From positions 332,382-396,381 of the forward strand of contig JAPYKE020000036.1 in assembly GCA_028554795.2 (NCBI GenBank): a DNA stretch of 64,000 nucleotides. The letters are read 5' to 3'. Origin of the DNA: Sinohyriopsis cumingii. Taxonomy: Eukaryota > Mollusca > Bivalvia > Unionida > Unionidae. The notes below the pieces were generated by a model that saw nothing but the letters and a program-made list of their open reading frames with translations, was not told the origin of the DNA and searched no databases. A program made the translations under genes and the position numbers. Of the stretch, positions 1 to 64,000 are shown piece by piece; positions within the stretch are counted from its first letter, which is position 1, and every line of letters starts with the position of its first letter.

Positions 1-191
1 TTGATCTGAGCTGCATGTTTTATTTCTGTGACCTGGCTTGTACTTTTTGGATCTACAATCTCACCTGCAGTTTTTGTGTCTGCTATCTGACCTTCACTTT
101 TTGTGCCTGCAATCTGGCTTGCACTTTCTGTTTCTGCGATCTGACCCACGGTTTTTGTGTCTGCTTTACCTTCACACAGGACAATATCAGT
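1..191 (-). CDS. Exon A, copy 1 (3' part outside the window)
   Basis: Only the first 63 codons are in view. The acceptor is at 191/192. The stop codon lies beyond the left edge. Confidence 0.5.
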
Positions 192-1117
192 CTGGAATTA
201 GCAAAATCGAATTATATCTACACGCCCCTTGATTGTATGGATGACACTGTAGCATTACTTTCCGAAGAGTTCTAATTGAATTTACATGTCAGTTGCTTGT
301 TACGACATGGTACAATGAATGTTAACCAATGGAGCAATACTGCATACAATTTGAAAGATGTTACTTTGCTTTAGTTTCTTTGTAAAATATTGAAATTAAG
401 TTTGTATTCAATCTAAAAAGGCTGAAAATTACATTTAGCCTAAGACACAAACAGCACGAGTTGATGTTTATGCTTTCACATTAGCTATTGTGATAATGAA
501 ATACTATATATTACTGTTGCACATGGGATGAAAGAGTGTTAATATACAGTAATGTCTCCTCCTTTAAGGATAAAGGTCTTATAAGCAGTAATCCGCTTTC
601 CCGCGCATTCGATGTTAATTATCTTAAGCCAGTAGCATTTTCACCATATAGGATACATTCCAAACGTGTTCCACATGTATAACGAAGTACTTTACTGATC
701 GGTTAATAACCACTTTTATGCAAAGTTTCTACATTGAATTGTATCTGATCCACATTGGAGAATTTGAAAGCTACACTACCGATGTGTCATACATTGAAAT
801 GTTACAATGAACCTTTAATGGTGGCTATTGCTCGTTCCACTCCAGGCTGAACAGAAACCATAACTCAGAAATAAATGTAGCTTATTCCTTGTGTGAAATC
901 AGGCAGTACTGGCAAAGCAATAGAGAAACTTCATGCAAAAGTCATTGACTGATACATAAAGCACTTAAGCGGTGATGCTGTCTGGGTGTGTGCTTTCGAG
1001 AATCTTGCCAAATTTGTACAAATTTATACACTTGGAGAACACTGATGCGTGAGAACTCCCACAAATTATTCAGAAATTAGTTAAAAGTCACGCATATAAA
1101 AATGTGCTCGGTGAAGA
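192..1117. other. Spacer, upper part of unit (copy 1)
   Basis: AT-rich with no convincing gene. A plus-strand frame, the same as that of the 1118 ATG, reads LSGDAVWVCAFENLAKFVQI from 965, but stops occur in it at about the random rate. A single G/C-richer patch, TTTCCCGCGCATTCG, lies at 597-611. Confidence 0.5.
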
Positions 1118-1282
1118 ATGGAGATAGCAGTGAGTGATTTTGAGCCCACAAATGGTGCTGAATATGAGCCAATTGTACATGTTAACGGATGGATAAAAAC
1201 AGATGACATGACAGTCAATCTCGCTTTCAGCAGTATTTCGAAATTACATATAGAAAGGGCAGAACCACTGAAATTGATTTAA
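1118..1282 (+). other. 54-residue ATG frame, balanced composition
   Basis: ATG at 1118, TAA at 1280. It starts MEIAVSDFEPTNGAEYEP and later has NGWIKTDDMTVNLAF, unusually balanced for this AT-rich DNA. It stays open in all eleven complete copies, but copies differ by Ile to Ser, Pro to Thr and Ala to Thr against one silent change. That argues against strong selection. An in-frame TGA lies six bases before the ATG. No family recognised. Confidence 0.15.
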
Positions 1283-2161
1283 AATACAGACAAGTTTTAA
1301 GTTGAAGGCAATTTTCATTTTTTTATCAATCAATTTAGCCCTGTTGATCTAATAATACAAAACCATATATCCACATCAGGGTTCAGATGAACTAAATAAA
1401 TAAGGATGAAAACAAAATTAAATCAAGCAGACTATGGCATTGATGGACTAAAAATCCCAATACAGCATTACCGAACAGGTGAGAAATCCGGCATAGTAGT
1501 CAGTTAACTACTGATTTAAGAAAGTAAGTTTATGTTTGTGACAAATCCTATTTTGGAGCAGATGTGTCCAAAAGATAATATGTGAGCTCTGGAAAATTGA
1601 TTTTGTTGGTATTCATCCTCATTCCCATGCCCAGATTAGTTCTAGATGTAACTTTCAATGTAAGACGAAACAACATTATTTCTTCTGATTTAAAGATAAC
1701 ATTATAATGTCTTCCATGTTTAAGAGAGACATGAAATTGGTAATAAGATGTTTTCAGTGCCATCATGCAGTACAAAACAAAGGGCCTGGTGGCTAAAGCG
1801 AGTTAAATGGAGCCACAATTAAATGGCCTAAAATGCTGAATAAAACTCACTGTCAACCAGCAGGTACCCTGTATGACATTTTATATATCTTGCCATTGAT
1901 AAGAATTGCATATAAATATATAATAAATATACGCCTAACTGTAATCTGCATACTGAAAATACACCCAGTATGTCAACATACACAAAAGGGAACCACCTAC
2001 CTTCCAAACATGGAAAGACTATCAAGTGAACGTGCATCAAAATGTATAATGTATCATACTGCAGACTGTATTGTGAATTGTATCGATACGTGTCACAGGT
2101 GTATTGTTTCACCACTAGTATACAGATCACGTGTACTTTCTGACCCCACGCAAATTGGGTG
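1283..2161. other. Spacer, variant-rich part of unit (copy 1)
   Basis: Contains the most copy-to-copy differences (1323-1480, 1697, 1956, 2098). At 1471-1480 the plus strand has CGAACAG|GTGA, a donor-like word that is lost in copies 7-10 (GATGAG). Frames of about 100 codons run on both strands at 1828-2162, but they overlap antisense and look non-coding. Confidence 0.5.
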
Positions 2162-2170
2162 AAAAAAAAA
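2162..2170 (+). repeat. Length-variable A-run
   Basis: Lengths in copies 1 to 11: 9, 9, 9, 9, 9, 9, 11, 12, 10, 10, 10. Confidence 0.9.
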
Positions 2171-2308
2171 CGGGTCCAAAAGATTAGGTTTTTCCCTCTG
2201 TATTTTGTAGTGTAACTAAAACGTCCAGATTATTTGGTATCATTGTAGAGCTACATCTGTCTACTTCTATAATACCACCCACTTTAGTGATCATACATGA
2301 CCTTGATG

Positions 2309-2380
2309 CTACAGAGCTCAGCAGTAAGCTACTACCTCCTGCCACGTAAATGCGGTGCCAGGGGTTAACGAGCTAAACCA
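2309..2380 (-). mobile_element. Possible older tRNA-SINE head (relic)
   Basis: On the minus strand GTGGTTTAGCTCGTTAA (A-box-like, 2380-2365) is followed about 58 bases later by GCTGAGCTCTGTAG (B-box-like, 2322-2309) and then AAGGTCATG. The spacing is longer than in a tRNA and the boxes are degenerate, so this is tentative. It recurs at the same place in every unit. Confidence 0.3.
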
Positions 2381-2384
2381 CTGA

Positions 2385-2872
2385 ATCTTGAAACAATCAT
2401 TGATACTCTTACAACTTTTCCAGTTTTTGGAGATCAAATGCCTCCTTCTTCCAGTTAAATCTTGGAATGAGAACATAACCCCTCAGTTCCTCTCATCATG
2501 TTTGAACTGGGTAATACACAACAAATATTCTGATTTAGCACTAGAATAAAGTCACCATATGAAGATTTCTGTTCATGAGAGAAGGTCAATACCTGAGAGC
2601 CATACCGTGACCATAAACCTGAGTGGTGAAACTATCAATAACATTGTAAACATTTATGAAAAAAACTCTAACAATGATAACTCTATGGACCAAATTACAA
2701 TGTGATGCTGAATCTGCTGAATCATGCTCAGCACTTATTTATGTGGAAACCCAGAAAACCACACATAATGAACCATATTGTTATGGAATAAAGAGAGTAT
2801 ATGATGCTTCTAAATAATTTACCTACTGACAGCGCAGACAGACTTGACAATTATATCATTTTTGAGATTTGA
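2385..2872 (+). pseudogene. Broken plus-strand frames, weakly transposase-like
   Basis: Three open stretches follow one another in different frames. First, 2385-2705 in one frame with a TAA at 2547-2549, containing KSWNENITPQFLSSC and later VTINLSGETINNIVNIY. Second, 2656-2817, containing SALIYVETQKTT and GIKRVYDASK. Third, 2813-2872, containing LPTDSADRLDNY. The W-x3-TP-x5-C pattern and the later ALxYVExQ pattern recall the C-terminal part of Tigger/pogo-type DDE transposases as I remember them. Each stretch is short enough to arise by chance in AT-rich DNA, and no DDE residues or terminal inverted repeats were found. Confidence 0.2.
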
Positions 2873-2983
2873 AATGCATTGTGGATGATAAGTGTAAAGA
2901 TGTAATGTTAATTCAACAGGTATTAAACAGGTCACAAAGTTGTTGATTTTGTATAGTGCGATAATATCTTACTGCAGATTGTA

Positions 2984-3145
2984 TTACATTTTTATTTTAA
3001 ATGTATGATACTGACTGTGCAGTTGTGATGTTGCACTTGAAGCATTACTACCATCACTACATGTAGATGACATTCGACCCCCAGGTACAATATCAGGTTC
3101 AGTGACTGTTGTCTGGTGAATTTGCACTAAATCCAAATGCAAAGT
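2984..3145 (-). other. Candidate alternative terminal exon (53 codons plus TAA)
   Basis: After an acceptor-like TTAGACTTTGCAG, the minus strand from 3145 stays open to TAA at 2986-2984. The peptide is Ser/Thr/Gln-rich, with HLDLVQIHQTTVTEPDIV early and SSATSQLHSQYH late. Read from the acceptor it starts in phase 0, so exon B could in principle join it instead of exon A. AATAAA overlaps the last codons. In copy 5 the one change in it (near 25880) is silent (CTG to CTT). A 53-codon frame is not rare by chance here. Confidence 0.2.
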
Positions 3146-3752
3146 CTGCAAAGTCTAACGATGATAATGCTGCACTGCTGACAGTATAGAAATTGTTTCC
3201 ATTTTCTTTGTATTTATACACAGCAGTCAGTACTTCAAAGGTCATCAGTTTTCTCTGAAGTCTCAGGAAAACTATTGTATTGGTACATTTAAAGACCCAG
3301 AAGGATTAACCGTCGTTTAATTAATTGTAGCTGTTTTTGTTTGCGTCTTCAGAGGTCGGTTGCTTGTTGGTACAGTCCAGTAGCATGATTGAGTGTATCA
3401 CAGCATACAGTACTCAGGCCAGATGTCAACATAAAGGGATTATGATGTAACAATGCACTGTAAAGATGGGTTTGTCAATACGAACAAAGGAATTGTTTAT
3501 GTAACAGATAAATTCCAGTGCATTGTGCATCCAAGTCTGTGGCTTCCTTTCATGGTCCTTTTGAATGTCTCCACCTCAATTCCATGATTATATGTACAAA
3601 TTAAAGAGCCAAAAAGGTTGCCGCCCAAAAAATTACCAGATGGTATATTTTTCGCCAATAAGGAAAATTAATCGCACTATGTGACATTGCCATAGCCCAG
3701 GACGATCCCTGCTTTATGTTTGCTACGGCAACCCAAGTAAATCTATAACTAA

Positions 3753-3761
3753 TTTTTTTTT
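3753..3761 (+). repeat. Length-variable T-run
   Basis: Lengths in copies 1 to 11: 9, 9, 9, 10, 10, 10, 11, 11, 11, 10, 10. Confidence 0.9.
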
Positions 3762-4131
3762 GTCAGTACGATTAGTATTTGTTACTTATTAATGAACTTT
3801 AAGTGAATAAAATTATATTTTATAGGGAGAAAATTTCTGAATAATAATTAAAGAAATATTGCATCATCGTAATAACTGAACTGTAGAGACATGTTTGAAA
3901 GTAACGTTTTAATTATCTAGGCCTAACAGTAATGAATTGAGGATATGTGATATGTAGGCAAAAAGTAAGTGGCCATGTACACATTCAGAAGAATTATATT
4001 TGATGGAACAGTATACACTATATTTGATTTTTTTGTCGAAAAATACTTTTTCACCGTTTTTCTCTATTTGGTTGCTATGGTAAACATGAACACACATCAA
4101 TTTCACCGACATCTAAGTGCTAGCAATCTGC

Positions 4132-4145
4132 ATGCATATATGCAT
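4132..4145. repeat. 14-bp perfect palindrome ATGCATATATGCAT
   Basis: Self-complementary without a spacer and present in every unit. Two overlapping ATGCAT words resemble octamer-type half sites, but binding is not implied. Confidence 0.6.
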
Positions 4146-4587
4146 CACTGTATAGAATTTCACAGCAATCTGATTATAAATAATAGTTCTGAAGCTGTTA
4201 TATGGATTTGACCCAAAACGTCTGTATTGTTCTCAATCAATTCAGCATTAAGAGATAGGGCGTTAGAAATAAATCTGCACTGGTTTTAAGGTCAAGCAAA
4301 ACAACACAGCACTAATCCTCTCCATCAGCACTGAGATGTGTTATGGTTTTGAGAAATCACATGAGCTTTATTGTACTTGAATTGGTATCTAAATACATTA
4401 CAATATGCTTTAAAAGAATACAACATGAAGCTTAATATTATTCTACATGACTTTGTATCTCTTTAGCCTTGCTAGACATTATTTTACAAAATGAAATACA
4501 CAAAGTGAACAAACATAATTTAATTCACATTAACTAAAATTACTGCTATATGATTAACTGTTATTTTGTTATTTTCTCCCTGCCCCA

Positions 4588-4601
4588 ACATGTATACATG
4601 T
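4588..4601. repeat. 14-bp perfect palindrome ACATGTATACATGT
   Basis: Self-complementary and present in every unit. Words of this type are abundant in many marine invertebrate genomes. Confidence 0.6.
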
Positions 4602-4810
4602 ACTGATGGAGGTTTTGGTCATTCTTGCTATACCATAGTTCACTATATAACGTGGTTCATTCAATTCATTAAAATTGCCATAATTTCTGCAAAACAAATG
4701 GTTCAGTGTATACGAAGCTCAATAGTTATGGATTTCAACTACCACACTGACATTATAAAGAGGGAGAGCTGAATATGAACTTTTCTAAAGACATGAAGTG
4801 TTGTTCTTAC

Positions 4811-4880
4811 CCTGTTCTGTTTAATCCACTCGTGTATGAACTTTATGCTGGACTCAAACTCCTTATACTGCTTCAACTTT
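4811..4880 (-). CDS. Exon B, copy 1 (reference): 70-nt internal exon coding an amphipathic helix
   Basis: On the minus strand a pyrimidine-rich acceptor, TTTTCTTCTCATCAG, precedes the exon, and the donor GG|GTAAGA follows it. Only one frame is open: one base completes a codon, then 23 codons follow, from KLKQYKEF to EWIKQNR. Y5, F8, I12, I15 and I19 are spaced 3-4-3-4, the pattern of a coiled coil or amphipathic helix. The acceptor phase is 2 and the donor phase is 0. Exon A begins in phase 0, so B could join A at 191 across a 4,619-bp intron. The exon that should come before B, ending with two bases of a codon, was not found. The short length means chance cannot be excluded, but both splice sites, an open frame and the helix pattern coincide. 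Confidence 0.5.
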
Positions 4881-4949
4881 CTGATGAGAAGAAAATTTCA
4901 GGTATTTAAACTTCCTTCGTTGTGATAGAGAAAAGAAACAGCTATCTCA

Positions 4950-5200
4950 TTTTTTTTGTGCCACTGGTATCTTTACTACATAATCGAATTTATATGCTGC
5001 AGAATTGTATTCCTTTTATTTTTGTTCGGTGTTTTACAGCACAGCAGTACAATTTATTTTATGCCAATACAATTGGAGTAAAGTTTCTTACCCATGAACA
5101 CACCATGGTAGCTGATCTGGGCTGATCCTATGGCAAGATTTGAACTCACACTATTGTTATGGGTCACAAGTCCATCATGCTAATGTCTAAGCCAACATGG
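4950..5200 (-). mobile_element. tRNA-derived SINE, copy 1 (reference)
   Basis: Read on the minus strand from about 5200. An A-box-like TGGCTTAGACATTAG lies at 5194-5180 and a B-box-like GAGTTCAAATC at 5147-5137, spaced as in a tRNA. An anticodon-arm-like GATGGACTTGTGACCCAT lies between them. The acceptor stem does not pair, so this is not a working tRNA gene. The body contains GGGTAAGAAACTTTAC, which recalls a block (CAAG-CACTTTAC type) common in tRNA SINEs of marine animals and fish; this is from memory. It ends in an A-tail at 4957-4950. No clear target-site duplication was found. Being present in every unit, it was inserted before amplification. Confidence 0.7.
5015..5058 (-). promoter_or_regulatory. 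Two AATAAA polyadenylation hexamers inside the SINE
   Basis: On the minus strand AATAAA occurs at 5058-5053 and 5020-5015, about 525 and 565 bp past the exon A stop at 5583. No AATAAA was seen between that stop and the SINE. If exon A is expressed, the SINE may supply its 3' end. This is inference; the hexamer is common in AT-rich DNA. Confidence 0.3.
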
Positions 5201-5582
5201 AATTTAACTTCATTTGTCACCTTATATGAAATACTGCAGGACGCAACTTGGATATTTTATAAGTGTGCAGAATTATGAACTTTAGAAGACAAGTAAATCA
5301 GCCAGACACTATCAACCTTGGACTGAATTAGCTTGTAATTGGAATTATTTCAGCTTTACAAATGTCTTATAATACCTGTACATTTATGACAAGTAGTACT
5401 GGAAATAATGTTAAGATATGTAATAAATGGGCAAATCAACTTGTAAAGTTCAAGAAATTTAAACAATTGAACATACAGAACAATGCCACTATTTTAAAGT
5501 ACCAGTCCAAAACTAATATTGATACGATAAATAAAAATTGACAAAACTGCACATTATGAATACTGAATGTTATTCATTCTGC
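5201..5582. other. Spacer between SINE and exon A stop (copy 1)
   Basis: Would be 3' untranslated sequence of exon A on the minus strand. A TATAAAAT word (minus, 5261-5254) and the acceptor/donor-like words TTATTTCCAG and TACAG|GTATTA near 5369-5400 were seen. The enclosed 23-base piece has no frame compatible with exon B. Confidence 0.4.
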
Positions 5583-5906
5583 TTACTCCCAAAGTTGTTG
5601 GATATAACCGTCCTTCTCATTTTTCCTGTCTTTGAGTATCCCCATTAACGCATCAACTTTCATCTGAACTTCCTGCCTCCCTGCCTGCTGCACTGCATTA
5701 AACAATATCAGCTCTTTGATCTGAGCTGCATGTTTTATTTCTGTGACCTGGCTTGTACTTTTTGGATCTACAATCTCACCTGCAGTTTTTGTGTCTGCTA
5801 TCTGACCTTCACTTTTTGTGCCTGCAATCTGGCTTGCACTTTCTGTTTCTGCGATCTGACCCACGGTTTTTGTGTCTGCTTTACCTTCACACAGGACAAT
5901 ATCAGT
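5583..5906 (-). CDS. Exon A, copy 2 (reference): terminal coding exon with 9-residue repeats and coiled-coil-like tail; function unknown
   Basis: Reads from 5906 down to a TAA at 5583-5585: 107 residues. The frame has an in-frame TAA six bases upstream (5913-5915), and the only Met codons lie near residues 82 and 88. The repeats therefore cannot be translated from an ATG here, and a spliced start at TTGCTAATTCCAG|ACTGAT fits best. Residues 7-60 are six 9-residue repeats such as GQIAETESA, SQIAGTKSE and GQIADTKTA. Residues 61-69 (AQIKELILF) are a seventh, diverging copy. Residues 70-107 are charged and helical, with V80, V84, L87 and L91 in a heptad-like pattern, ending in YIQQLWE. I see no signal peptide, membrane segment or catalytic motif and do not recognise the family. 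The acceptor phase (0) matches the donor of exon B. It could also be a decayed remnant carried along by the repeat. Confidence 0.55.
   Translation of the reverse strand, partial: TDIVLCEGKADTKTVGQIAETESASQIAGTKSEGQIADTKTAGEIVDPKSTSQVTEIKHAAQIKELILFNAVQQAGRQEVQMKVDALMGILKDRKNEKDGYIQQLWE
5700..5888 (-). repeat. 27-bp coding minisatellite inside exon A (shown for copy 2)
   Basis: Six 27-bp units read down from 5888 to 5727, with a seventh half-conserved one to 5700. The consensus peptide is roughly (G/S)(Q/E)(I/V)(A/V)(D/E/G)(T/P)K(T/S)(A/E), as in GQIADTKTA. The units differ from one another far more than the 5.7-kb copies do, so the minisatellite is older than the array. The same block recurs in every exon A. 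Confidence 0.85.
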
Positions 5907-8900
5907 CTGGAATTAGCAAAATCGAATTATATCTGCACGCCCCTTGATTGTATGGATGACACTGTAGCATTACTTTCCGAAGAGTTCTAATTGAATTTAC
6001 ATGTCAGTTGCTTGTTACGACATGGTACAATGAATGTTAACCAATGGAGCAATACTGCATACAATTTGAAAGATGTTACTTTGCTTTAGTTTCTTTGTAA
6101 AATATTGAAATTAAGTTTGTATTCAATCTAAAAAGGCTGAAAATTACATTTAGCCTAAGACACAAACAGCACGAGTTGATGTTTATGCTTTCACATTAGC
6201 TATTGTGATAATGAAATACTATATATTACTGTTGCACATGGGATGAAAGAGTGTTAATATACAGTAATGTCTCCTCCTTTAAGGATAAAGGTCTTATAAG
6301 CAGTAATCCGCTTTCCCGCGCATTCGATGTTAATTATCTTAAGCCAGTAGCATTTTCACCATATAGGATACATTCCAAACGTGTTCCACATGTATAACGA
6401 AGTACTTTACTGATCGGTTAATAACCACTTTTATGCAAAGTTTCTACATTGAATTGTATCTGATCCACATTGGAGAATTTGAAAGCTACACTACCGATGT
6501 GTCATACATTGAAATGTTACAATGAACCTTTAATGGTGGCTATTGCTCGTTCCACTCCAGGCTGAACAGAAACCATAACTCAGAAATAAATGTAGCTTAT
6601 TCCTTGTGTGAAATCAGGCAGTACTGGCAAAGCAATAGAGAAACTTCATGCAAAAGTCATTGACTGATACATAAAGCACTTAAGCGGTGATGCTGTCTGG
6701 GTGTGTGCTTTCGAGAATCTTGCCAAATTTGTACAAATTTATACACTTGGAGAACACTGATGCGTGAGAACTCCCACAAATTATTCAGAAATTAGTTAAA
6801 AGTCACGCATATAAAAATGTGCTCGGTGAAGAATGGAGATAGCAGTGAGTGATTTTGAGCCCACAAATGGTGCTGAATATGAGCCAATTGTACATGTTAA
6901 CGGATGGATAAAAACAGATGACATGACAGTCAATCTCGCTTTCAGCAGTATTTCGAAATTACATATAGAAAGGGCAGAACCACTGAAATTAATTTAAAAT
7001 ACAGACAAGTTTTAAGTTGAAGGCAATTTTCATTTTTTTATCAATCAATTTAGCCCTGTTGATCTAATAATACAAAACCATATATCCACATCAGGGTTCA
7101 GATGAACTAAATAAATAAGGATGAAAACAAAATTAAATCAAGCAGACTATGGCATTGATGGACTAAAAATCCCAATACAGCATTACCGAACAGGTGAGAA
7201 ATCCGGCATAGTAGTCAGTTAACTACTGATTTAAGAAAGTAAGTTTATGTTTGTGACAAATCCTATTTTGGAGCAGATGTGTCCAAAAGATAATATGTGA
7301 GCTCTGGAAAATTGATTTTGTTGGTATTCATCCTCATTCCCATGCCCAGATTAGTTCTAGATGTAACTTTCAATGTAAGACGAAACAACATTATTTCTTC
7401 TGATTTAAAGATAACATTATAATGTCTTCCATGTTTAAGAGAGACATGAAATTGGTAATAAGATGTTTTCAGTGCCATCATGCAGTACAAAACAAAGGGC
7501 CTGGTGGCTAAAGCGAGTTAAATGGAGCCACAATTAAATGGCCTAAAATGCTGAATAAAACTCACTGTCAACCAGCAGGTACCCTGTATGACATTTTATA
7601 TATCTTGCCATTGATAAGAATTGCATATAAATATATAATAAATATACGCCTAACTGTAATCTGCATACTGAAAATACACCCAGTATGTCAACATACACAA
7701 AAGGGAACCACCTACCTTCCAAACATGGAAAGACTATCAAGTGAACGTGCATCAAAATGTATAATGTATCATACTGCAGACTGTATTGTGAATTGTATCG
7801 ATACGTGTCACAGGTGTATTGTTTCACCACTAGTATACAGATCACGTGTACTTTCTGACCCCACGCAAATTGGGTGAAAAAAAAACGGGTCCAAAAGATT
7901 AGGTTTTTCCCTCTGTATTTTGTAGTGTAACTAAAACGTCCAGATTATTTGGTATCATTGTAGAGCTACATCTGTCTACTTCTATAATACCACCCACTTT
8001 AGTGATCATACATGACCTTGATGCTACAGAGCTCAGCAGTAAGCTACTACCTCCTGCCACGTAAATGCGGTGCCAGGGGTTAACGAGCTAAACCACTGAA
8101 TCTTGAAACAATCATTGATACTCTTACAACTTTTCCAGTTTTTGGAGATCAAATGCCTCCTTCTTCCAGTTAAATCTTGGAATGAGAACATAACCCCTCA
8201 GTTCCTCTCATCATGTTTGAACTGGGTAATACACAACAAATATTCTGATTTAGCACTAGAATAAAGTCACCATATGAAGATTTCTGTTCATGAGAGAAGG
8301 TCAATACCTGAGAGCCATACCGTGACCATAAACCTGAGTGGTGAAACTATCAATAACATTGTAAACATTTATGAAAAAAACTCTAACAATGATAACTCTA
8401 TGGACCAAATTACAATGTGATGCTGAATCTGCTGAATCATGCTCAGCACTTATTTATGTGGAAACCCAGAAAACCACACATAATGAACCATATTGTTATG
8501 GAATAAAGAGAGTATATGATGCTTCTAAATAATTTACCTACTGACAGCGCAGACAGACTTGACAATTATATCATTTTTGAGATTTGAAATGCATTGTGGA
8601 TGATAAGTGTAAAGATGTAATGTTAATTCAACAGGTATTAAACAGGTCACAAAGTTGTTGATTTTGTATAGTGCGATAATATCTTACTGCAGATTGTATT
8701 ACATTTTTATTTTAAATGTATGATACTGACTGTGCAGTTGTGATGTTGCACTTGAAGCATTACTACCATCACTACATGTAGATGACATTCGACCCCCAGG
8801 TACAATATCAGGTTCAGTGACTGTTGTCTGGTGAATTTGCACTAAATCCAAATGCAAAGTCTGCAAAGTCTAACGATGATAATGCTGCACTGCTGACAGT

Positions 8901-10525: not shown

Positions 10526-10595
10526 CCTGTTCTGTTTAATCCACTCGTGTATGAACTTTATGCTGGACTCAAACTCCTTATACTGCTTCAACTTT
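10526..10595 (-). CDS. Exon B, copy 2 (Asn22 form)
   Basis: Same as copy 1, with donor and acceptor unchanged. Confidence 0.48.
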
Positions 10596-10664
10596 CTGAT
10601 GAGAAGAAAATTTCAGGTATTTAAACTTCCTTCGTTGTGATAGAGAAAAGAAACAGCTATCTCA

Positions 10665-11297: not shown

Positions 11298-11621
11298 TTA
11301 CTCCCAAAGTTGTTGGATATAACCGTCCTTCTCATTTTTCCTGTCTTTGAGTATCCCCATTAACGCATCAACTTTCATCTGAACTTCCTGCCTCCCTGCC
11401 TGCTGCACTGCATTAAACAATATCAGCTCTTTGATCTGAGCTGCATGTTTTATTTCTGTGACCTGGCTTGTACTTTTTGGATCTACAATCTCACCTGCAG
11501 TTTTTGTGTCTGCTATCTGACCTTCACTTTTTGTGCCTGCAATCTGGCTTGCACTTTCTGTTTCTGCGATCTGACCCACGGTTTTTGTGTCTGCTTTACC
11601 TTCACACAGGACAATATCAGT
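11298..11621 (-). CDS. Exon A, copy 3
   Basis: Protein identical to the copy at 5583-5906. Acceptor and stop are intact. Confidence 0.52.
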   Translation of the reverse strand, partial: TDIVLCEGKADTKTVGQIAETESASQIAGTKSEGQIADTKTAGEIVDPKSTSQVTEIKHAAQIKELILFNAVQQAGRQEVQMKVDALMGILKDRKNEKDGYIQQLWE

Positions 11622-16240: not shown

Positions 16241-16310
16241 CCTGTTCTGTTTAATCCACTCGTGTATGAACTTTATGCTGGACTCAAACTCCTTATACTG
16301 CTTCAACTTT
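16241..16310 (-). CDS. Exon B, copy 3 (Asn22 form)
   Basis: Same as copy 1. Last copy with Asn22 before the His22 run begins. Confidence 0.48.
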
Positions 16311-17012: not shown

Positions 17013-17336
17013 TTACTCCCAAAGTTGTTGGATATAACCGTCCTTCTCATTTTTCCTGTCTTTGAGTATCCCCATTAACGCATCAACTTTCATCTGAACT
17101 TCCTGCCTCCCTGCCTGCTGCACTGCATTAAACAATATCAGCTCTTTGATCTGAGCTGCATGTTTTATTTCTGTGACCTGGCTTGTACTTTTTGGATCTA
17201 CAATCTCACCTGCAGTTTTTGTGTCTGCTATCTGACCTTCACTTTTTGTGCCTGCAATCTGGCTTGCACTTTCTGTTTCTGCGATCTGACCCACGGTTTT
17301 TGTGTCTGCTTTACCTTCACACAGGACAATATCAGT
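17013..17336 (-). CDS. Exon A, copy 4
   Basis: No base change seen in the exon, although this unit differs from copies 1-3 further right. Confidence 0.52.
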   Translation of the reverse strand, partial: TDIVLCEGKADTKTVGQIAETESASQIAGTKSEGQIADTKTAGEIVDPKSTSQVTEIKHAAQIKELILFNAVQQAGRQEVQMKVDALMGILKDRKNEKDGYIQQLWE

Positions 17337-21956: not shown

Positions 21957-22026
21957 CCTGTGCTGTTTAATCCACTCGTGTATGAACTTTATGCTGGACT
22001 CAAACTCCTTATACTGCTTCAACTTT
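21957..22026 (-). CDS. Exon B, copy 4 (His22 form)
   Basis: Plus-strand CCTGTTCTG becomes CCTGTGCTG, changing the second-last residue from Asn to His, next to the donor. Confidence 0.48.
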
Positions 22027-22728: not shown

Positions 22729-23052
22729 TTACTCCCAAAGTTGTTGGATATAACCGTCCTTCTCATTTTTCCTGTCTTTGAGTATCCCCATTAACGCATC
22801 AACTTTCATCTGAACTTCCTGCCTCCCTGCCTGCTGCACTGCATTAAACAATATCAGCTCTTTGATCTGAGCTGCATGTTTTATTTCTGTGACCTGGCTT
22901 GTACTTTTTGGATCTACAATCTCACCTGCAGTTTTTGTGTCTGCTATCTGACCTTCACTTTTTGTGCCTGCAATCTGGCTTGCACTTTCTGTTTCTGCGA
23001 TCTGACCCACGGTTTTTGTGTCTGCTTTACCTTCACACAGGACAATATCAGT
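22729..23052 (-). CDS. Exon A, copy 5
   Basis: Intact. The nearest change in the flank is about 270 bp away, near 23323. Confidence 0.52.
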   Translation of the reverse strand, partial: TDIVLCEGKADTKTVGQIAETESASQIAGTKSEGQIADTKTAGEIVDPKSTSQVTEIKHAAQIKELILFNAVQQAGRQEVQMKVDALMGILKDRKNEKDGYIQQLWE

Positions 23053-27672: not shown

Positions 27673-27742
27673 CCTGTGCTGTTTAATCCACTCGTGTATG
27701 AACTTTATGCTGGACTCAAACTCCTTATACTGCTTCAACTTT
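27673..27742 (-). CDS. Exon B, copy 5 (His22 form)
   Basis: His22; otherwise as the reference. Confidence 0.48.
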
Positions 27743-28445: not shown

Positions 28446-28769
28446 TTACTCCCAAAGTTGTTGGATATAACCGTCCTTCTCATTTTTCCTGTCTTTGAGT
28501 ATCCCCATTAACGCATCAACTTTCATCTGAACTTCCTGCCTCCCTGCCTGCTGCACTGCATTAAACAATATCAGCTCTTTGATCTGAGCTGCATGTTTTA
28601 TTTCTGTGACCTGGCTTGTACTTTTTGGATCTACAATCTCACCTGCAGTTTTTGTGTCTGCTATCTGACCTTCACTTTTTGTGCCTGCAATCTGGCTTGC
28701 ACTTTCTGTTTCTGCGATCTGACCCACGGTTTTTGTGTCTGCTTTACCTTCACACAGGACAATATCAGT
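28446..28769 (-). CDS. Exon A, copy 6
   Basis: Intact. The unit's private base insertion lies outside, near 29042. Confidence 0.52.
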   Translation of the reverse strand, partial: TDIVLCEGKADTKTVGQIAETESASQIAGTKSEGQIADTKTAGEIVDPKSTSQVTEIKHAAQIKELILFNAVQQAGRQEVQMKVDALMGILKDRKNEKDGYIQQLWE

Positions 28770-33390: not shown

Positions 33391-33460
33391 CCTGTGCTGT
33401 TTAATCCACTCGTGTATGAACTTTATGCTGGACTCAAACTCCTTATACTGCTTCAACTTT
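33391..33460 (-). CDS. Exon B, copy 6 (His22 form)
   Basis: His22. The neighbouring SINE tail is expanded to 12 in this unit. Confidence 0.48.
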
Positions 33461-34166: not shown

Positions 34167-34490
34167 TTACTCCCAAAGTTGTTGGATATAACCGTCCTTC
34201 TCATTTTTCCTGTCTTTGAGTATCCCCATTAACGCATCAACTTTCATCTGAACTTCCTGCCTCCCTGCCTGCTGCACTGCATTAAACAATATCAGCTCTT
34301 TGATCTGAGCTGCATGTTTTATTTCTGTGACCTGGCTTGTACTTTTTGGATCTACAATCTCACCTGCAGTTTTTGTGTCTGCTATCTGACCTTCACTTTT
34401 TGTGCCTGCAATCTGGCTTGCACTTTCTGTTTCTGCGATCTGACCCACGGTTTTTGTGTCTGCTTTACCTTCACACAGGACAATATCAGT
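34167..34490 (-). CDS. Exon A, copy 7
   Basis: Unchanged although this unit has the most private differences elsewhere. Confidence 0.52.
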   Translation of the reverse strand, partial: TDIVLCEGKADTKTVGQIAETESASQIAGTKSEGQIADTKTAGEIVDPKSTSQVTEIKHAAQIKELILFNAVQQAGRQEVQMKVDALMGILKDRKNEKDGYIQQLWE

Positions 34491-39112: not shown

Positions 39113-39182
39113 CCTGTGCTGTTTAATCCACTCGTGTATGAACTTTATGCTGGACTCAAACTCCTTATACTGCTTCAACTTT
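39113..39182 (-). CDS. Exon B, copy 7 (His22 form)
   Basis: His22. One intron base just past the donor differs (GTAAGAGC instead of GTAAGAAC); the core donor is intact. Confidence 0.48.
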
Positions 39183-39884: not shown

Positions 39885-40208
39885 TTACTCCCAAAGTTGT
39901 TGGATATAACCGTCCTTCTCATTTTTCCTGTCTTTGAGTATCCCCATTAACGCATCAACTTTCATCTGAACTTCCTGCCTCCCTGCCTGCTGCACTGCAT
40001 TAAACAATATCAGCTCTTTGATCTGAGCTGCATGTTTTATTTCTTTGACCTGGCTTGTACTTTTTGGATCTACAATCTCACCTGCAGTTTTTGTGTCTGC
40101 TATCTGACCTTCACTTTTTGTGCCTGCAATCTGGCTTGCACTTTCTGTTTCTGCGATCTGACCCACGGTTTTTGTGTCTGCTTTACCTTCACACAGGACA
40201 ATATCAGT
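39885..40208 (-). CDS. Exon A, copy 8 (one amino-acid change)
   Basis: Plus-strand G to T at 40045 turns the sixth repeat from SQVTEIKHA into SQVKEIKHA (Thr55 to Lys). The frame and splice site stay intact. This is the only exon A coding change I found in the window. Confidence 0.52.
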   Translation of the reverse strand, partial: TDIVLCEGKADTKTVGQIAETESASQIAGTKSEGQIADTKTAGEIVDPKSTSQVKEIKHAAQIKELILFNAVQQAGRQEVQMKVDALMGILKDRKNEKDGYIQQLWE

Positions 40209-44830: not shown

Positions 44831-44900
44831 CCTGTGCTGTTTAATCCACTCGTGTATGAACTTTATGCTGGACTCAAACTCCTTATACTGCTTCAACTTT
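44831..44900 (-). CDS. Exon B, copy 8 (His22 form)
   Basis: His22; splice signals intact. Confidence 0.48.
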
Positions 44901-45602: not shown

Positions 45603-45926
45603 TTACTCCCAAAGTTGTTGGATATAACCGTCCTTCTCATTTTTCCTGTCTTTGAGTATCCCCATTAACGCATCAACTTTCATCTGAACTTCCTGCCTCC
45701 CTGCCTGCTGCACTGCATTAAACAATATCAGCTCTTTGATCTGAGCTGCATGTTTTATTTCTGTGACCTGGCTTGTACTTTTTGGATCTACAATCTCACC
45801 TGCAGTTTTTGTGTCTGCTATCTGACCTTCACTTTTTGTGCCTGCAATCTGGCTTGCACTTTCTGTTTCTGCGATCTGACCCACGGTTTTTGTGTCTGCT
45901 TTACCTTCACACAGGACAATATCAGT
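45603..45926 (-). CDS. Exon A, copy 9
   Basis: Intact, with the Thr55 form. Confidence 0.52.
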   Translation of the reverse strand, partial: TDIVLCEGKADTKTVGQIAETESASQIAGTKSEGQIADTKTAGEIVDPKSTSQVTEIKHAAQIKELILFNAVQQAGRQEVQMKVDALMGILKDRKNEKDGYIQQLWE

Positions 45927-50548: not shown

Positions 50549-50618
50549 CCTGTGCTGTTTAATCCACTCGTGTATGAACTTTATGCTGGACTCAAACTCC
50601 TTATACTGCTTCAACTTT
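50549..50618 (-). CDS. Exon B, copy 9 (His22 form)
   Basis: Last His22 copy in the window. Confidence 0.48.
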
Positions 50619-50687
50619 CTGATGAGAAGAAAATTTCAGGTATTTAAACTTCCTTCGTTGTGATAGAGAAAAGAAACAGCTATCTCA

Positions 50688-51320: not shown

Positions 51321-51644
51321 TTACTCCCAAAGTTGTTGGATATAACCGTCCTTCTCATTTTTCCTGTCTTTGAGTATCCCCATTAACGCATCAACTTTCA
51401 TCTGAACTTCCTGCCTCCCTGCCTGCTGCACTGCATTAAACAATATCAGCTCTTTGATCTGAGCTGCATGTTTTATTTCTGTGACCTGGCTTGTACTTTT
51501 TGGATCTACAATCTCACCTGCAGTTTTTGTGTCTGCTATCTGACCTTCACTTTTTGTGCCTGCAATCTGGCTTGCACTTTCTGTTTCTGCGATCTGACCC
51601 ACGGTTTTTGTGTCTGCTTTACCTTCACACAGGACAATATCAGT
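51321..51644 (-). CDS. Exon A, copy 10
   Basis: Intact. A flanking change (AATATTAAC near 51774) lies upstream of the acceptor, well outside the exon. Confidence 0.52.
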   Translation of the reverse strand, partial: TDIVLCEGKADTKTVGQIAETESASQIAGTKSEGQIADTKTAGEIVDPKSTSQVTEIKHAAQIKELILFNAVQQAGRQEVQMKVDALMGILKDRKNEKDGYIQQLWE

Positions 51645-54600: not shown

Positions 54601-56263
54601 GCAAAGTCTAACGATGATAATGCTGCACTGCTGACAGTATAGAAATTGTTTCCATTTTCTTTGTATTTATACACAGCAGTCAGTACTTCAAAGGTCATCA
54701 GTTTTCTCTGAAGTCTCAGGAAAACTATTGTATTGGTACATTTAAAGACCCAGAAGGATTAACCGTCGTTTAATTAATTGTAGCTGTTTTTGTTTGCGTC
54801 TTCAGAGGTCGGTTGCTTGTTGGTACAGTCCAGTAGCATGATTGAGTGTATCACAGCATACAGTACTCAGGCCAGATGTCAACATAAAGGGATTATGATG
54901 TAACAATGCACTGTAAAGATGGGTTTGTCAATACGAACAAAGGAATTGTTTATGTAACAGATAAATTCCAGTGCATTGTGCATCCAAGTCTGTGGCTTCC
55001 TTTCATGGTCCTTTTGAATGTCTCCACTCCAATTCCATGATTATATGTACAAATTAAAGAGCCAAAAAGGTTGCCGCCCAAAAAATTACCAGATGGTATA
55101 TTTTTCGCCAATAAGGAAAATTAATCGCACTATGTGACATTGCCATAGCCCAGGACGATCCCTGCTTTATGTTTGCTACGGCAACCCAAGTAAATCTATA
55201 ACTAATTTTTTTTTTGTCAGTACGATTAGTATTTGTTACTTATTAATGAACTTTAAGTGAATAAAATTATATTTTATAGGGAGAAAATTTCTGAATAATA
55301 ATTAAAGAAATATTGCATCATCGTAATAACTGAACTGTAGAGACATGTTTGAAAGTAACGTTTTAATTATCTAGGCCTAACAGTAATGAATTGAGGATAT
55401 GTGATATGTAGGCAAAAAGTAAGTGGCCATGTACACATTCAGAAGAATTATATTTGATGGAACAGTATACACTATATTTGATTTTTTTGTCGAAAAATAC
55501 TTTTTCACCGTTTTTTTCTATTTGGTTGCTATGGTAAACATGAACACAAATCAATTTCACCGACATCTAAGTGCTAGCAATCTGCATGCATATATGCATC
55601 ACTGTATATAATTTCACAGCAATCTGATTATAAATAATAGTTCTGAAGCTGTTATATGGATTTGGCCCAAAACGTCTGTATTGTTCTCAATCAATTCAGC
55701 ATTAAGAGATAGGGCGTTAGAAATAAATCTGCACTGGTTTTAAGGTCAAGCAAAACAACACAGCACTAATCCTCTCCATCAGCACTGAGATGTGTTATGG
55801 TTTTGAGAAATCACATGAGCTTTATTATACTTGAATTGGTATCTAAATACATTACAATATGCTTTAAAAGAATACAACATGAAGCTTAATATTATTCTAC
55901 ATGACTTTGTATCTCTTTAGCCTTGCTAGACATTATTTTACAAAATGAAATACACAAAGTGAACAAACATAATTTAATTCACATTAACTAAAATTACTGC
56001 TATATGATTAACTGTTATTTTGTTATTTTCTCCCTGCCCCAACATGTATACATGTACTGATGGAAGTTTTGGTCATTCTTGCTATACCATAGTTCACTAT
56101 ATAACGTGGTTCATTCAATTCATTAAAATTTCAATAATTTCTGCAAAAAAATGGTTCAGTGTATACGAAGCTCAATAGTTATGGATTTCAACTACCACAC
56201 TGACATTATAAAGAGGGAGAGCTGAATATGAACTTTTCTAAAGACATGAAGTGTTGTTCTTAC

Positions 56264-56333
56264 CCTGTTCTGTTTAATCCACTCGTGTATGAACTTTATG
56301 CTGGACTCAAACTCCTTATACTGCTTCAACTTT
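56264..56333 (-). CDS. Exon B, copy 10 (Asn22 form)
   Basis: Returns to Asn22 as in copies 1-3, although most of this unit belongs to the diverged group. Confidence 0.48.
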
Positions 56334-56402
56334 CTGATGAGAAGAAAATTTCAGGTATTTAAACTTCCTTCGTTGTGATAGAGAAAAGAAACAGCTATCT
56401 CA

Positions 56403-56653
56403 TTTTTTTTGTGCCACTGGTATCTTTACTACATAATCGAATTTATATGCTGCAGAATTGTATTCCTTTTATTTTTGTTCGGTGTTTTACAGCACAGCAG
56501 TACAATTTATTTTATGCCAATACAATTGGAGTAAAGTTTCTTACCCATGAACACACCATGGTAGCTGATCTGGGCTGATCCTATGGCAAGATTTGAACTC
56601 ACACTATTGTTATGGGTCACAAGTCCATCATGCTAATGTCTAAGCCAACATGG
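56403..56653 (-). mobile_element. tRNA-derived SINE, copy 10
   Basis: Tail of 8 A. Confidence 0.68.
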
Positions 56654-57035
56654 AATTTAACTTCATTTGTCACCTTATATGAAATACTGCAGGACGCAAC
56701 TTGGATATTTTATAAGTGTGCAGAATTATGAACTTTAGAAGACAAGTAAATCAGCCAGACACTATCAACCTTGGACTGAATTAGCTTGTAATTGGAATTA
56801 TTTCAGCTTTACAAATGTCTTATAATACCTGTACATTTGTGACAAGTAGTACTGGAAATAATGTTAAGATATGTAATAAATGGGCAAATCAACTTGTAAA
56901 GTTCAAGAAATTTAAACAATTGAACATACTGAACAATGCCACTATTTTAAAGTACCAGTCCAAAACTAATATTGATACGATAAATAAAAATTGACAAAAC
57001 TGCACATTATGAATACTGAATGTTATTCATTCTGC

Positions 57036-57359
57036 TTACTCCCAAAGTTGTTGGATATAACCGTCCTTCTCATTTTTCCTGTCTTTGAGTATCCCCATTA
57101 ACGCATCAACTTTCATCTGAACTTCCTGCCTCCCTGCCTGCTGCACTGCATTAAACAATATCAGCTCTTTGATCTGAGCTGCATGTTTTATTTCTGTGAC
57201 CTGGCTTGTACTTTTTGGATCTACAATCTCACCTGCAGTTTTTGTGTCTGCTATCTGACCTTCACTTTTTGTGCCTGCAATCTGGCTTGCACTTTCTGTT
57301 TCTGCGATCTGACCCACGGTTTTTGTGTCTGCTTTACCTTCACACAGGACAATATCAGT
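57036..57359 (-). CDS. Exon A, copy 11
   Basis: Intact and identical in protein to the reference copy. Confidence 0.52.
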   Translation of the reverse strand, partial: TDIVLCEGKADTKTVGQIAETESASQIAGTKSEGQIADTKTAGEIVDPKSTSQVTEIKHAAQIKELILFNAVQQAGRQEVQMKVDALMGILKDRKNEKDGYIQQLWE

Positions 57360-60300: not shown

Positions 60301-61979
60301 TCCAAATGCAAAGTCTGCAAAGTCTAACGATGATAATGCTGCACTGCTGACAGTATAGAAATTGTTTCCATTTTCTTTGTATTTATACACAGCAGTCAGT
60401 ACTTCAAAGGTCATCAGTTTTCTCTGAAGTCTCAGGAAAACTATTGTATTGGTACATTTAAAGACCCAGAAGGATTAACCGTCGTTTAATTAATTGTAGC
60501 TGTTTTTGTTTGCGTCTTCAGAGGTCGGTTGCTTGTTGGTACAGTCCAGTAGCATGATTGAGTGTATCACAGCATACAGTACTCAGGCCAGATGTCAACA
60601 TAAAGGGATTATGATGTAACAATGCACTGTAAAGATGGGTTTGTCAATACGAACAAAGGAATTGTTTATGTAACAGATAAATTCCAGTGCATTGTGCATC
60701 CAAGTCTGTGGCTTCCTTTCATGGTCCTTTTGAATGTCTCCACTCCAATTCCATGATTATATGTACAAATTAAAGAGCCAAAAAGGTTGCCGCCCAAAAA
60801 ATTACCAGATGGTATATTTTTCGCCAATAAGGAAAATTAATCGCACTATGTGACATTGCCATAGCCCAGGACGATCCCTGCTTTATGTTTGCTACGGCAA
60901 CCCAAGTAAATCTATAACTAATTTTTTTTTTGTCAGTACGATTAGTATTTGTTACTTATTAATGAACTTTAAGTGAATAAAATTATATTTTATAGGGAGA
61001 AAATTTCTGAATAATAATTAAAGAAATATTGCATCATCGTAATAACTGAACTGTAGAGACATGTTTGAAAGTAACGTTTTAATTATCTAGGCCTAACAGT
61101 AATGAATTGAGGATATGTGATATGTAGGCAAAAAGTAAGTGGCCATGTACACATTCAGAAGAATTATATTTGATGGAACAGTATACACTATATTTGATTT
61201 TTTTGTCGAAAAATACTTTTTCACCGTTTTTCTCTATTTGGTTGCTATGGTAAACATGAACACAAATCAATTTCACCGACATCTAAGTGCTAGCAATCTG
61301 CATGCATATATGCATCACTGTATATAATTTCACAGCAATCTGATTATAAATAATAGTTCTGAAGCTGTTATATGGATTTGGCCCAAAACGTCTGTATTGT
61401 TCTCAATCAATTCAGCATTAAGAGATAGGGCGTTAGAAATAAATCTGCACTGGTTTTAAGGTCAAGCAAAACAACACAGCACTAATCCTCTCCATCAGCA
61501 CTGAGATGTGTTATGGTTTTGAGAAATCACATGAGCTTTATTATACTTGAATTGGTATCTAAATACATTACAATATGCTTTAAAAGAATACAACATGAAG
61601 CTTAATATTATTCTACATGACTTTGTATCTCTTTAGCCTTGCTAGACATTATTTTACAAAATGAAATACACAAAGTGAACAAACATAATTTAATTCACAT
61701 TAACTAAAATTACTGCTATATGATTAACTGTTATTTTGTTATTTTCTCCCTGCCCCAACATGTATACATGTACTGATGGAAGTTTTGGTCATTCTTGCTA
61801 TACCATAGTTCACTATATAACGTGGTTCATTCAATTCATTAAAATTTCAATAATTTCTGCAAAAAAATGGTTCAGTGTATACGAAGCTCAATAGTTATGG
61901 ATTTCAACTACCACACTGACATTATAAAGAGGGAGAGCTGAATATGAACTTTTCTAAAGACATGAAGTGTTGTTCTTAC

Positions 61980-62049
61980 CCTGTTCTGTTTAATCCACTC
62001 GTGTATGAACTTTATGCTGGACTCAAACTCCTTATACTGCTTCAACTTT
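61980..62049 (-). CDS. Exon B, copy 11 (Asn22 form)
   Basis: Asn22. It would pair with exon A at 57036-57359. Confidence 0.48.
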
Positions 62050-62118
62050 CTGATGAGAAGAAAATTTCAGGTATTTAAACTTCCTTCGTTGTGATAGAGA
62101 AAAGAAACAGCTATCTCA

Positions 62119-62369
62119 TTTTTTTTGTGCCACTGGTATCTTTACTACATAATCGAATTTATATGCTGCAGAATTGTATTCCTTTTATTTTTGTTCGGTG
62201 TTTTACAGCACAGCAGTACAATTTATTTTATGCCAATACAATTGGAGTAAAGTTTCTTACCCATGAACACACCATGGTAGCTGATCTGGGCTGATCCTAT
62301 GGCAAGATTTGAACTCACACTATTGTTATGGGTCACAAGTCCATCATGCTAATGTCTAAGCCAACATGG
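62119..62369 (-). mobile_element. tRNA-derived SINE, copy 11
   Basis: Tail of 8 A. Confidence 0.68.
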
Positions 62370-62751
62370 AATTTAACTTCATTTGTCACCTTATATGAAA
62401 TACTGCAGGACGCAACTTGGATATTTTATAAGTGTGCAGAATTATGAACTTTAGAAGACAAGTAAATCAGCCAGACACTATCAACCTTGGACTGAATTAG
62501 CTTGTAATTGGAATTATTTCAGCTTTACAAATGTCTTATAATACCTGTACATTTGTGACAAGTAGTACTGGAAATAATGTTAAGATATGTAATAAATGGG
62601 CAAATCAACTTGTAAAGTTCAAGAAATTTAAACAATTGAACATACTGAACAATGCCACTATTTTAAAGTACCAGTCCAAAACTAATATTGATACGATAAA
62701 TAAAAATTGACAAAACTGCACATTATGAATACTGAATGTTATTCATTCTGC

Positions 62752-63075
62752 TTACTCCCAAAGTTGTTGGATATAACCGTCCTTCTCATTTTTCCTGTCT
62801 TTGAGTATCCCCATTAACGCATCAACTTTCATCTGAACTTCCTGCCTCCCTGCCTGCTGCACTGCATTAAACAATATCAGCTCTTTGATCTGAGCTGCAT
62901 GTTTTATTTCTGTGACCTGGCTTGTACTTTTTGGATCTACAATCTCACCTGCAGTTTTTGTGTCTGCTATCTGACCTTCACTTTTTGTGCCTGCAATCTG
63001 GCTTGCACTTTCTGTTTCTGCGATCTGACCCACGGTTTTTGTGTCTGCTTTACCTTCACACAGGACAATATCAGT
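62752..63075 (-). CDS. Exon A, copy 12
   Basis: Intact. The last complete exon in the window; the exon B that would precede it lies beyond the right edge. Confidence 0.52.
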   Translation of the reverse strand, partial: TDIVLCEGKADTKTVGQIAETESASQIAGTKSEGQIADTKTAGEIVDPKSTSQVTEIKHAAQIKELILFNAVQQAGRQEVQMKVDALMGILKDRKNEKDGYIQQLWE

Positions 63076-64000
63076 CTGGAATTAGCAAAATCGAATTATA
63101 TCTACACGCCCCTTGATTGTATGGATGACACTGTAGCATTACTTTCCGAAGAGTTCTAATTGAATTTACATGTCAGTTGCTTGTTACGACATGGTACAAT
63201 GAATGTTAACCAATGGAGCAATACTGCATACAATTTGAAAGATGTTACTTTGCTTTAGTTTCTTTGTAAAATATTGAAATTAAGTTTGTATTCAATCTAA
63301 AAAGGCTGAAAATTACATTTAGCCTAAGACACAAACAGCACGAGTTGATGTTTATGCTTTCACATTAGCTATTGTGATAATGAAATACTATATATTACTG
63401 TTGCACATGGGATGAAAGAGTGTTAATATACAGTAATGTCTCCTCCTTTAAGGATAAAGGTCTTATAAGCAGTAATCCGCTTTCCCGCGCATTCGATGTT
63501 AATTATCTTAAGCCAGTAGCATTTTCACCATATAGGATACATTCCAAACGTGTTCCACATGTATAACGAAGTACTTTACTGATCGGTTAATAACCACTTT
63601 TATGCAAAGTTTCTACATTGAATTGTATCTGATCCACATTGGAGAATTTGAAAGCTACACTACCGATGTGTCATACATTGAAATGTTACAATGAACCTTT
63701 AATGGTGGTTATTGCTCGTTCCACTCCAGGCTGAACAGAAACCATAACTCAGAAATAAATGTAGCTTATTCCTTGTGTGAAATCAGGCAGTACTGGCAAA
63801 GCAATAGAGAAACTTCATGCAAAAGTCATTGACTGATACATAAAGCACTTAAGCGGTGATGCTGTCTGGGTGTGTGCTTTCGAGAATCTTGCCAAATTTG
63901 TACAAATTTATACACTTGGAGAACACTGATGCGTGAGAACTCCCACAAATTATTCAGAAATTAGTTAAAAGTCACGCATATAAAAATGTGCTCGGTGAAG
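62885..64000. repeat. Array unit, copy 12 (cut by window end)
   Basis: The first 1,116 bases of a further unit, with no sign of divergence or of the array ending. Confidence 0.93.

What the first reader, a model, noticed from the sequence alone, without database searches (positions are those of the whole stretch)
1..64000. Undivided macrosatellite of 5.7-kb units filling the window
Eleven complete units with more than 99% visual identity and no interruption are unusual for a unit this long. The window never reaches a flank, so the real array is larger. Both its size and its chromosomal setting (centromere, telomere, sex chromosome or gene cluster) are open.
Basis: seen in the sequence. Interest (0 to 1): 0.75.

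Follow-up and report, generated by a model that had tools for sequence, protein, structure and literature searches.

The report
Megabase tandem array carrying gene exons
A 5.7-kb stretch of probably animal DNA is repeated head to tail about three hundred times in this genome, and each copy in the window seems to carry two pieces of a protein-coding gene, so it looks like a gene fragment that was amplified into a giant satellite.

Summary
The window is 11 complete 5,715-5,721-bp units plus partial ends, 99.37-99.97% identical, uninterrupted. It is the end of a 396-kb contig of a 2.9-Gb genome. Four contigs (1.25 Mb summed) are array at both ends and every sampled point, a fifth has copies over about 170 kb, and a 63-base marker occurs 301 times, implying about 1.7 Mb. 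No flank was reached.

New here: each unit carries on the minus strand two exon-like blocks, A (320 nt) and B (70 nt), whose phases close around the unit (390 nt = 130 codons). The 11 window pairs join into 1,430 codons without a stop. A is far more protein-like than shuffled sequence (0 of 300); the splice evidence is moderate (7 of 300). The layout resembles the 5.6-kb, two-exon LPA kringle IV-2 repeat. Yet exon variation looks neutral (9 of 10 changes replace an amino acid) and 10 of 150 scored copies have a shortened frame. Best reading: a gene-derived macrosatellite homogenised by unequal exchange, not one living giant gene. Flanks, parent gene, species and transcription remain unknown.

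The parts
1..64000 (.). Tandem array: complete units start at 29, 5744, 11459, 17174, 22890, 28607, 34328, 40046, 45764, 51482, 57197 (last complete unit ends 62912); partial units 1-28 and 62913-64000
   Evidence: k-mer anchors and alignment
1..191 (-). Exon-like block A, cut by the window start
   Evidence: (coordinates on the unit consensus)
42..164 (-). 27-bp minisatellite inside block A (4.6 copies; also at 5757-5879 and 11472-11594 in the 13 kb scanned), read on the minus strand as a 9-residue repeat
4811..4880 (-). Exon-like block B, unit 1 (70 nt)
5587..5906 (-). Exon-like block A (320 nt)
10526..10595 (-). Block B
11302..11621 (-). Block A
16241..16310 (-). Block B
17017..17336 (-). 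Block A
21957..22026 (-). Block B
22733..23052 (-). Block A
27673..27742 (-). Block B
28450..28769 (-). Block A
33391..33460 (-). Block B
34171..34490 (-). Block A
39113..39182 (-). Block B (missed by the first search pattern because of a change just inside the intron; donor GTAAGA intact)
   Evidence: coordinates read; found by the wider pattern
39889..40208 (-). Block A
44831..44900 (-). Block B
45607..45926 (-). Block A
50549..50618 (-). Block B
51325..51644 (-). Block A
56264..56333 (-). Block B
57040..57359 (-). Block A
61980..62049 (-). Block B
62756..63075 (-). Block A

Best explanation
It is a macrosatellite that arose when a 5.7-kb segment of a multi-exon gene, holding two exons and their introns, was tandemly amplified to roughly 300 copies (about 1.7 Mb). 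Unequal exchange and gene conversion between neighbours keep the copies about 99.5% alike. Shown: the array, its size class in the assembly, local blocks of shared variants, and two exon-like blocks on the minus strand (A: 320 nt, a nonapeptide repeat followed by a long predicted helix; B: 70 nt) with splice-like borders and phases that close around the unit. Inferred: that A and B descend from real exons, that the copies now mostly evolve without protein-level constraint, and that exchange is the homogenising process.
For: Array and size. Local blocks of shared variants between neighbouring units, with switches within units. Block A is exceptionally protein-like: 30.1 bits on an amino-acid composition score, against 7.1 for the best ORF of the unit outside A and at most 9.7 in 300 dinucleotide shuffles (0 of 300; the reference composition is recalled). 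AlphaFold2 without an alignment gives A a 59-residue helix, 43 of 109 residues at pLDDT 90 or more; one control, the longest ORF of the unit (133 aa), has 0 of 133. The best one- or two-block cycle that closes in frame scores 24.6 (shuffle mean 14.1; 7 of 300 shuffles reach it). The 11 window pairs of A and B join to 1,430 codons with no stop. For loss of constraint: exon SNP sites 10 of 390 against 162 of 5,326 elsewhere, 9 of the 10 non-synonymous, 73% expected at random, 10 of 150 scored copies have open frames of 98 or 51 aa instead of 109.
Against: No parent gene, no further exon and no homologue were found. Differences among the 27-bp repeats fall evenly on the three codon positions (43, 40, 40), so these repeats show no coding signature. 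The donor at the end of A (GGA|GTAAGC) is weak, 1.6 bits, while the strongest donor-like site of that strand (CAG|GTGAGA, 7.5 bits) lies inside A; an exon ending there (127 nt) tops the list and would not fit B in phase. The in-frame cycle is only a roughly 1-in-40 event among shuffles, and the plus strand also reaches 21.0. Block B alone is not protein-like by composition (-2.1 bits). The neutral look of the exon variation rests on 10 to 11 sites and has little power. No transcript evidence exists here.
Confidence: 0.55

Rival explanations
1. A coding repeat inside one or a few very large genes, as in LPA kringle IV-2: each unit adds one 130-residue module, and the stop-like TAA at the end of A is spliced out because it overlaps the donor GTAAGC.
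For: The 320 + 70 nt cassette closes in frame in both directions; the 11 window pairs are intact; one fetched copy near the start of C36 has an A shorter by exactly 27 nt, one 9-residue module, in frame, and 5 of 150 scored copies there have a frame of 100 aa, nine fewer; unit length and two-exon layout match LPA KIV-2 (PMC11462820, passages).
Against: 10 of 150 scored copies have shortened open frames, all on C64 and partly in runs of neighbours; exon variants are 9 non-synonymous to 1 synonymous; the first A copy of C36 is frame-shifted with 4 stops, though a contig start may be of low quality; the donor of A is weak; about 300 modules would make a protein of some 39,000 residues.
Confidence: 0.15
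2. A tandem array of separate short genes, one per unit, with A as last exon ending at its in-frame TAA and B upstream of it.
For: The open frame of A runs to an in-frame TAA; B ends and A begins in phase 0.
Against: I recognised no first exon with a phase-compatible start in the 0.7 kb upstream of B (my own reading, no tool result). The TAA sits exactly in a donor-like GTAAGC and the A-to-B phase also fits, a double coincidence under this reading. Variation looks neutral.
Confidence: 0.15
3. An ordinary non-coding macrosatellite; the exon-like blocks are chance.
For: 7 of 300 shuffles give an equally good exon cycle; no third-position excess; weak donor at the end of A and a stronger one inside it; no homologue found; neutral-looking variation.
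Against: Composition score of A (0 of 300 shuffles) and the confident helix against one control ORF.
Confidence: 0.14
4. Assembly artefact: a few real units copied many times by the assembler.
For: Read depth cannot be inspected; C36, C64, C496 and C498 end inside the array.
Against: Distinct haplotypes in local blocks, a divergent subtype limited to one contig start, shortened frames confined to C64, a register break on C64.
Confidence: 0.01

Closest known systems
Human LPA kringle IV type 2 repeat (KIV-2 VNTR)
   Same: 5.6-kb tandem unit with two short exons (about 160 and 182 bp) and introns of about 4 kb and 1.2 kb, 1 to about 40 copies (PMC11462820, passages). Here: 5.7 kb, exon-like blocks of 320 and 70 nt, introns of about 0.7 and 4.6 kb, closing in phase.
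   Different: No Pfam kringle match in six frames; about 300 copies instead of up to about 40; some copies apparently broken; no evidence of a surrounding gene or transcript.
Macrosatellites D4Z4 (3.3 kb) and DXZ4 (3 kb)
   Same: Kilobase-scale units in tandem arrays (PMC8122249, passages).
   Different: Larger unit; CpG-poor (observed/expected 0.41, GC 35%), whereas DXZ4 is described there as CpG-rich with 12-100 copies; no sequence comparison with them was made.
Tandem multigene arrays (rDNA, 5S, tRNA, snRNA, histone)
   Same: Many near-identical units kept alike by concerted evolution (general knowledge, recalled).
   Different: No Rfam match at gathering level in the whole window or at E up to 1 in 1-6000, no tRNA by ARAGORN, no Pfam family above its curated cut-off in six frames of about one unit.

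Membership tests
Macrosatellite | Units of one to several kb repeated directly head to tail | tested here: met
Macrosatellite | Large array of tens of units or more | tested here: met
   301 marker copies in the assembly; four contigs array at both ends and at all sampled points (with the window)
Macrosatellite | Copy number varies between individuals | not testable with these tools
   one assembly only
Intragenic coding repeat of the LPA KIV-2 type | Exons per unit that close in reading frame | tested here: inconclusive
   320 + 70 nt close in frame, but exon status is a prediction with moderate support (7 of 300 shuffles as good; weak donor)
Intragenic coding repeat of the LPA KIV-2 type | Reading frame kept across the units | tested here: not met
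   met in the 11 window units, not met array-wide: 10 of 150 scored copies with frames of 98 or 51 aa; 1 of 41 fetched A copies frame-shifted
Intragenic coding repeat of the LPA KIV-2 type | Surrounding gene with promoter and end exons | not tested
Tandem ribosomal/tRNA/snRNA/histone gene array | Recognisable RNA or histone genes in the unit | tested here: not met
Array of a transposon or virus | Transposase, reverse transcriptase or viral domains | tested here: not met
   six-frame Pfam scan of about one unit: one family listed, below its cut-off and unrelated; no match of 8 kb in phage records. The doubled 130-aa module gave a sub-threshold hit to a virion-protein family (SP24, 20.8 bits, cut-off 30), taken as chance. 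Remnants without domains are not excluded
Centromeric satellite | Location at and binding of the centromere | not testable with these tools
   no chromosome map, no flank

The most novel reading that the evidence does not exclude
Part of the array is a living gene in which scores to hundreds of 5.7-kb units each contribute one 130-residue module (a nonapeptide-repeat linker plus a long helix), giving a giant, copy-number-variable, largely helical protein encoded by what looks like a satellite.
Probability: 0.1. Interest if true: 0.85.

Novelty: new member of a known kind. Interest (0 to 1): 0.42.

Why it matters
If gene exons were amplified to megabase scale, the array is a natural case of how coding sequence turns into satellite DNA, with hundreds of copies in which to follow the loss of constraint. 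If part of it is still spliced and translated, it would extend the LPA-type coding repeat to far higher copy number. Either way the test is simple: long cDNA and the array flanks.

Tried and rejected
RNA genes, tRNAs and known protein domains as the basis of the unit: no match above a curated level (two weak sub-threshold Pfam rows, CdiI_4 at E 0.018 and YbfN at E 0.19, taken as chance). A doubled 130-aa query gave 20 Pfam families, all below their curated cut-offs (best SP24, E 0.0004, 20.8 bits against 30), taken as chance on a doubled, partly helical query. Homologues: none in the protein collection, none convincing in solved structures (best E 0.23 and 1.1), none in prokaryote genome contigs (52 pattern stretches, none confirmed), none in phage records for 8 kb, none in viral contigs for one 25-mer. 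None of these collections is meant to hold animal genomes, so the lack of a homologue says little. One search used a pattern that I mistyped; its empty result means nothing. One search used splice thresholds too strict to list an exon and was replaced. In one search block B was cut one base off, so its joined translation there is wrong; searches are right. In some searches one of 11 window B copies was missed by the search pattern, so their joined frame shows false stops; searches corrected it. My note says seven 98-aa frames; the recount is six. The fold control is a single ORF. Literature: searches with three and six terms returned 0 papers; two searches gave listings, from which passages of two papers were read. 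No search was made for this organism, whose name is unknown.
Full report
Observation. The window is an uninterrupted direct tandem array: 11 complete units of 5,715-5,721 bp plus a 28-bp and a 1,088-bp partial unit, 99.37-99.97% identical between complete units (gap columns not counted), with 76 variable columns of 5,725. GC is 35% and CpG observed/expected 0.41. Tandem Repeats Finder on the first 13 kb (periods up to 500) finds one kind of internal repeat, a 27-bp minisatellite of 4.6 copies per unit.

Extent. The window's assembly has 2,904,868,851 bases in 1,138 contigs, and the window is C36:332382-396381, the end of a 396,381-bp contig. C36 (396,381 bp), C64 (395,915), C496 (290,874) and C498 (164,719) are array at both ends and at every stretch that I sampled: on C36 the window plus 90 kb in 9 stretches, on C496 100 kb in 10 stretches, on C64 11 samples and on C498 7 samples of 300 bases (one C64 sample matched in 251 of 300 bases). 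Their lengths add up to 1,247,889 bp. The first 300 bases of six contigs with neighbouring numbers (C35, C37, C63, C65, C495, C497) are not array. A 63-base marker in block B with up to 3 mismatches occurs 277 times forward and 24 times reverse, against 0 for the reversed pattern; at one per unit this implies about 1.7 Mb, or 0.06% of the assembly. Only 100 of those 301 places were listed, on C36, C64 and C498. A fifth contig, C427, has copies between 738,215 and 907,968, not all evenly spaced in the list.

Internal order. Among 54 complete or partial units in the fetched DNA, neighbours share blocks of variants at 81 informative columns, and blocks switch within units, the pattern expected from unequal exchange and conversion. 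C36 begins with a divergent subtype: the unit at 1065 has 49 differences from the consensus, and a subtype marker lacking one 27-bp repeat is found 7 times in the genome, all at C36:1050-35233. C64 has a register break between 302.3 and 304.05 kb. A 1.4-kb stretch (consensus 2120-3519) has 15 SNP sites where 36.5 are expected; 0 of 500 permutations are as low. Four widths were scanned: 400, 700, 1000 and 1400 bases gave 210, 26, 8 and 0 of 500 (with C36:1-10000 left out).

What is in the unit. There is no RNA family match at gathering level in the whole window and none at E up to 1 in positions 1-6000, no tRNA, and no Pfam family above its cut-off in ten ORFs or in six frames of about one unit. 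On the minus strand a splice-site and reading-frame scan of the unit consensus finds block A (320 nt, acceptor 1.5 and donor 1.6 bits) and block B (70 nt, acceptor 3.6 and donor 4.8 bits) (the splice-site weights are recalled metazoan averages). A begins in phase 0 and ends with two bases of a codon; B supplies the third and ends in phase 0. The pair closes around the unit: 390 nt, 130 codons. The best such cycle scores 24.6; 300 dinucleotide shuffles average 14.1 and 7 reach it; the plus strand reaches 21.0. Against it: the strongest donor-like site of that strand, 7.5 bits, lies inside A, and the exon that would end there heads the list but would not fit B in phase. The in-frame TAA at the end of A lies in the donor GTAAGC, so it is a stop only if A is not spliced there. 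Introns are about 0.7 and 4.6 kb.

Is it protein? A scores 30.1 bits on amino-acid composition, the best ORF outside A 7.1, and the best ORF in each of 300 shuffles at most 9.7 (reference composition recalled; shuffling also destroys the internal repeat, which helps A). B alone scores -2.1 and adds nothing. AlphaFold2 without alignment predicts for A a low-confidence first half and a helix at residues 50-108, with 43 of 109 residues at pLDDT 90 or above; one control, the 133-aa ORF of the same unit, has 0 of 133. Against this, differences among six 27-bp repeats are spread evenly over codon positions, 43:40:40. No homologue was found, in collections that hold few or no animal genomes.

Is it under selection now? 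Across a 44-fold sample, 10 of 390 exon sites and 162 of 5,326 other sites carry a SNP, and 3 exon and 56 other sites an indel; 9 of the 10 exon changes replace an amino acid, 1 does not. One search shows one further replacement (threonine to lysine, 1 of 11 window units) that the local alignments missed at the end of the consensus. Random changes would give 73% replacements, 23% silent and 5% stops. Of 41 A copies with recognisable borders in the fetched DNA, 39 are 320 nt without a stop, one is 293 (27 fewer, no stop) and one, the first on C36, is 292 with 4 stops; 45 B copies are 70 nt without a stop (copies with altered borders would not be recognised). The 11 window pairs join to 1,430 codons without a stop, in three protein variants. 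In the genome-wide protein search 150 of 606 candidates were scored: by my count the open frame is 109 aa in all but 17 rows (100 aa in 5, 98 in 6, 51 in 4, 112 and 114 in 1 each); the 98 and 51 classes are all on C64. The stops listed inside those matches fit the TAA and TGA just beyond the end of A. So 10 of 150 look broken in A, and exon variation looks neutral, on few sites.

Interpretation. By unit length and arrangement the array is a macrosatellite (PMC8122249, passages). Its anatomy resembles the LPA kringle IV-2 repeat: 5.6 kb, two exons of about 160 and 182 bp, introns of about 4 and 1.2 kb, 1 to about 40 copies (PMC11462820, passages). But membership in that kind needs a frame kept through the units and a surrounding gene; the first was tested and is not met array-wide, the second could not be tested. 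I therefore favour a segment of a gene with two exons, amplified to satellite scale and now mostly drifting (0.55), over a living repeat gene (0.15), separate short genes (0.15), chance exon-likeness (0.14) and assembly artefact (0.01).

Noticed in passing
window about 2148-3547 and the same stretch of other units: SNP-poor 1.4-kb stretch: 15 SNP sites where 36.5 are expected, 0 of 500 permutations as low, the widest of four widths tried. Constraint or uneven conversion; unexplained.
   Followed up: partly
window 1115-1282, plus strand: A 55-aa open frame with the most protein-like composition outside block A (7.1 bits; shuffles' 95% level 6.3), lying in a variant-rich part of the unit; perhaps a scrap of another gene.
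   Followed up: no
window about 5090-5235, minus strand: Looks by eye like a decayed tRNA-derived SINE (A-box- and B-box-like words); ARAGORN and Rfam report nothing there. Recalled motif, no tool result.
   Followed up: no
G000 C64:302300-304050: Out-of-register junction within the array.
   Followed up: partly
G000 C36:1050-35233: Divergent subtype with one 27-bp module fewer in block A, 7 marker matches and none elsewhere in the assembly at up to 3 mismatches; possibly nearer to an array edge.
   Followed up: partly
G000 C427:738215-907968: Array copies on a contig that starts at least 738 kb before them, so a flank may be assembled there; some listed spacings are not multiples of the unit (e.g. 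761036 to 768706).
   Followed up: no
G000 C64:3725-55300 and C64:220917-301075: Shortened open frames in block A (51 aa in 4 copies, 98 aa in 6), partly in runs of neighbouring units, as if a damaged copy had spread locally.
   Followed up: no
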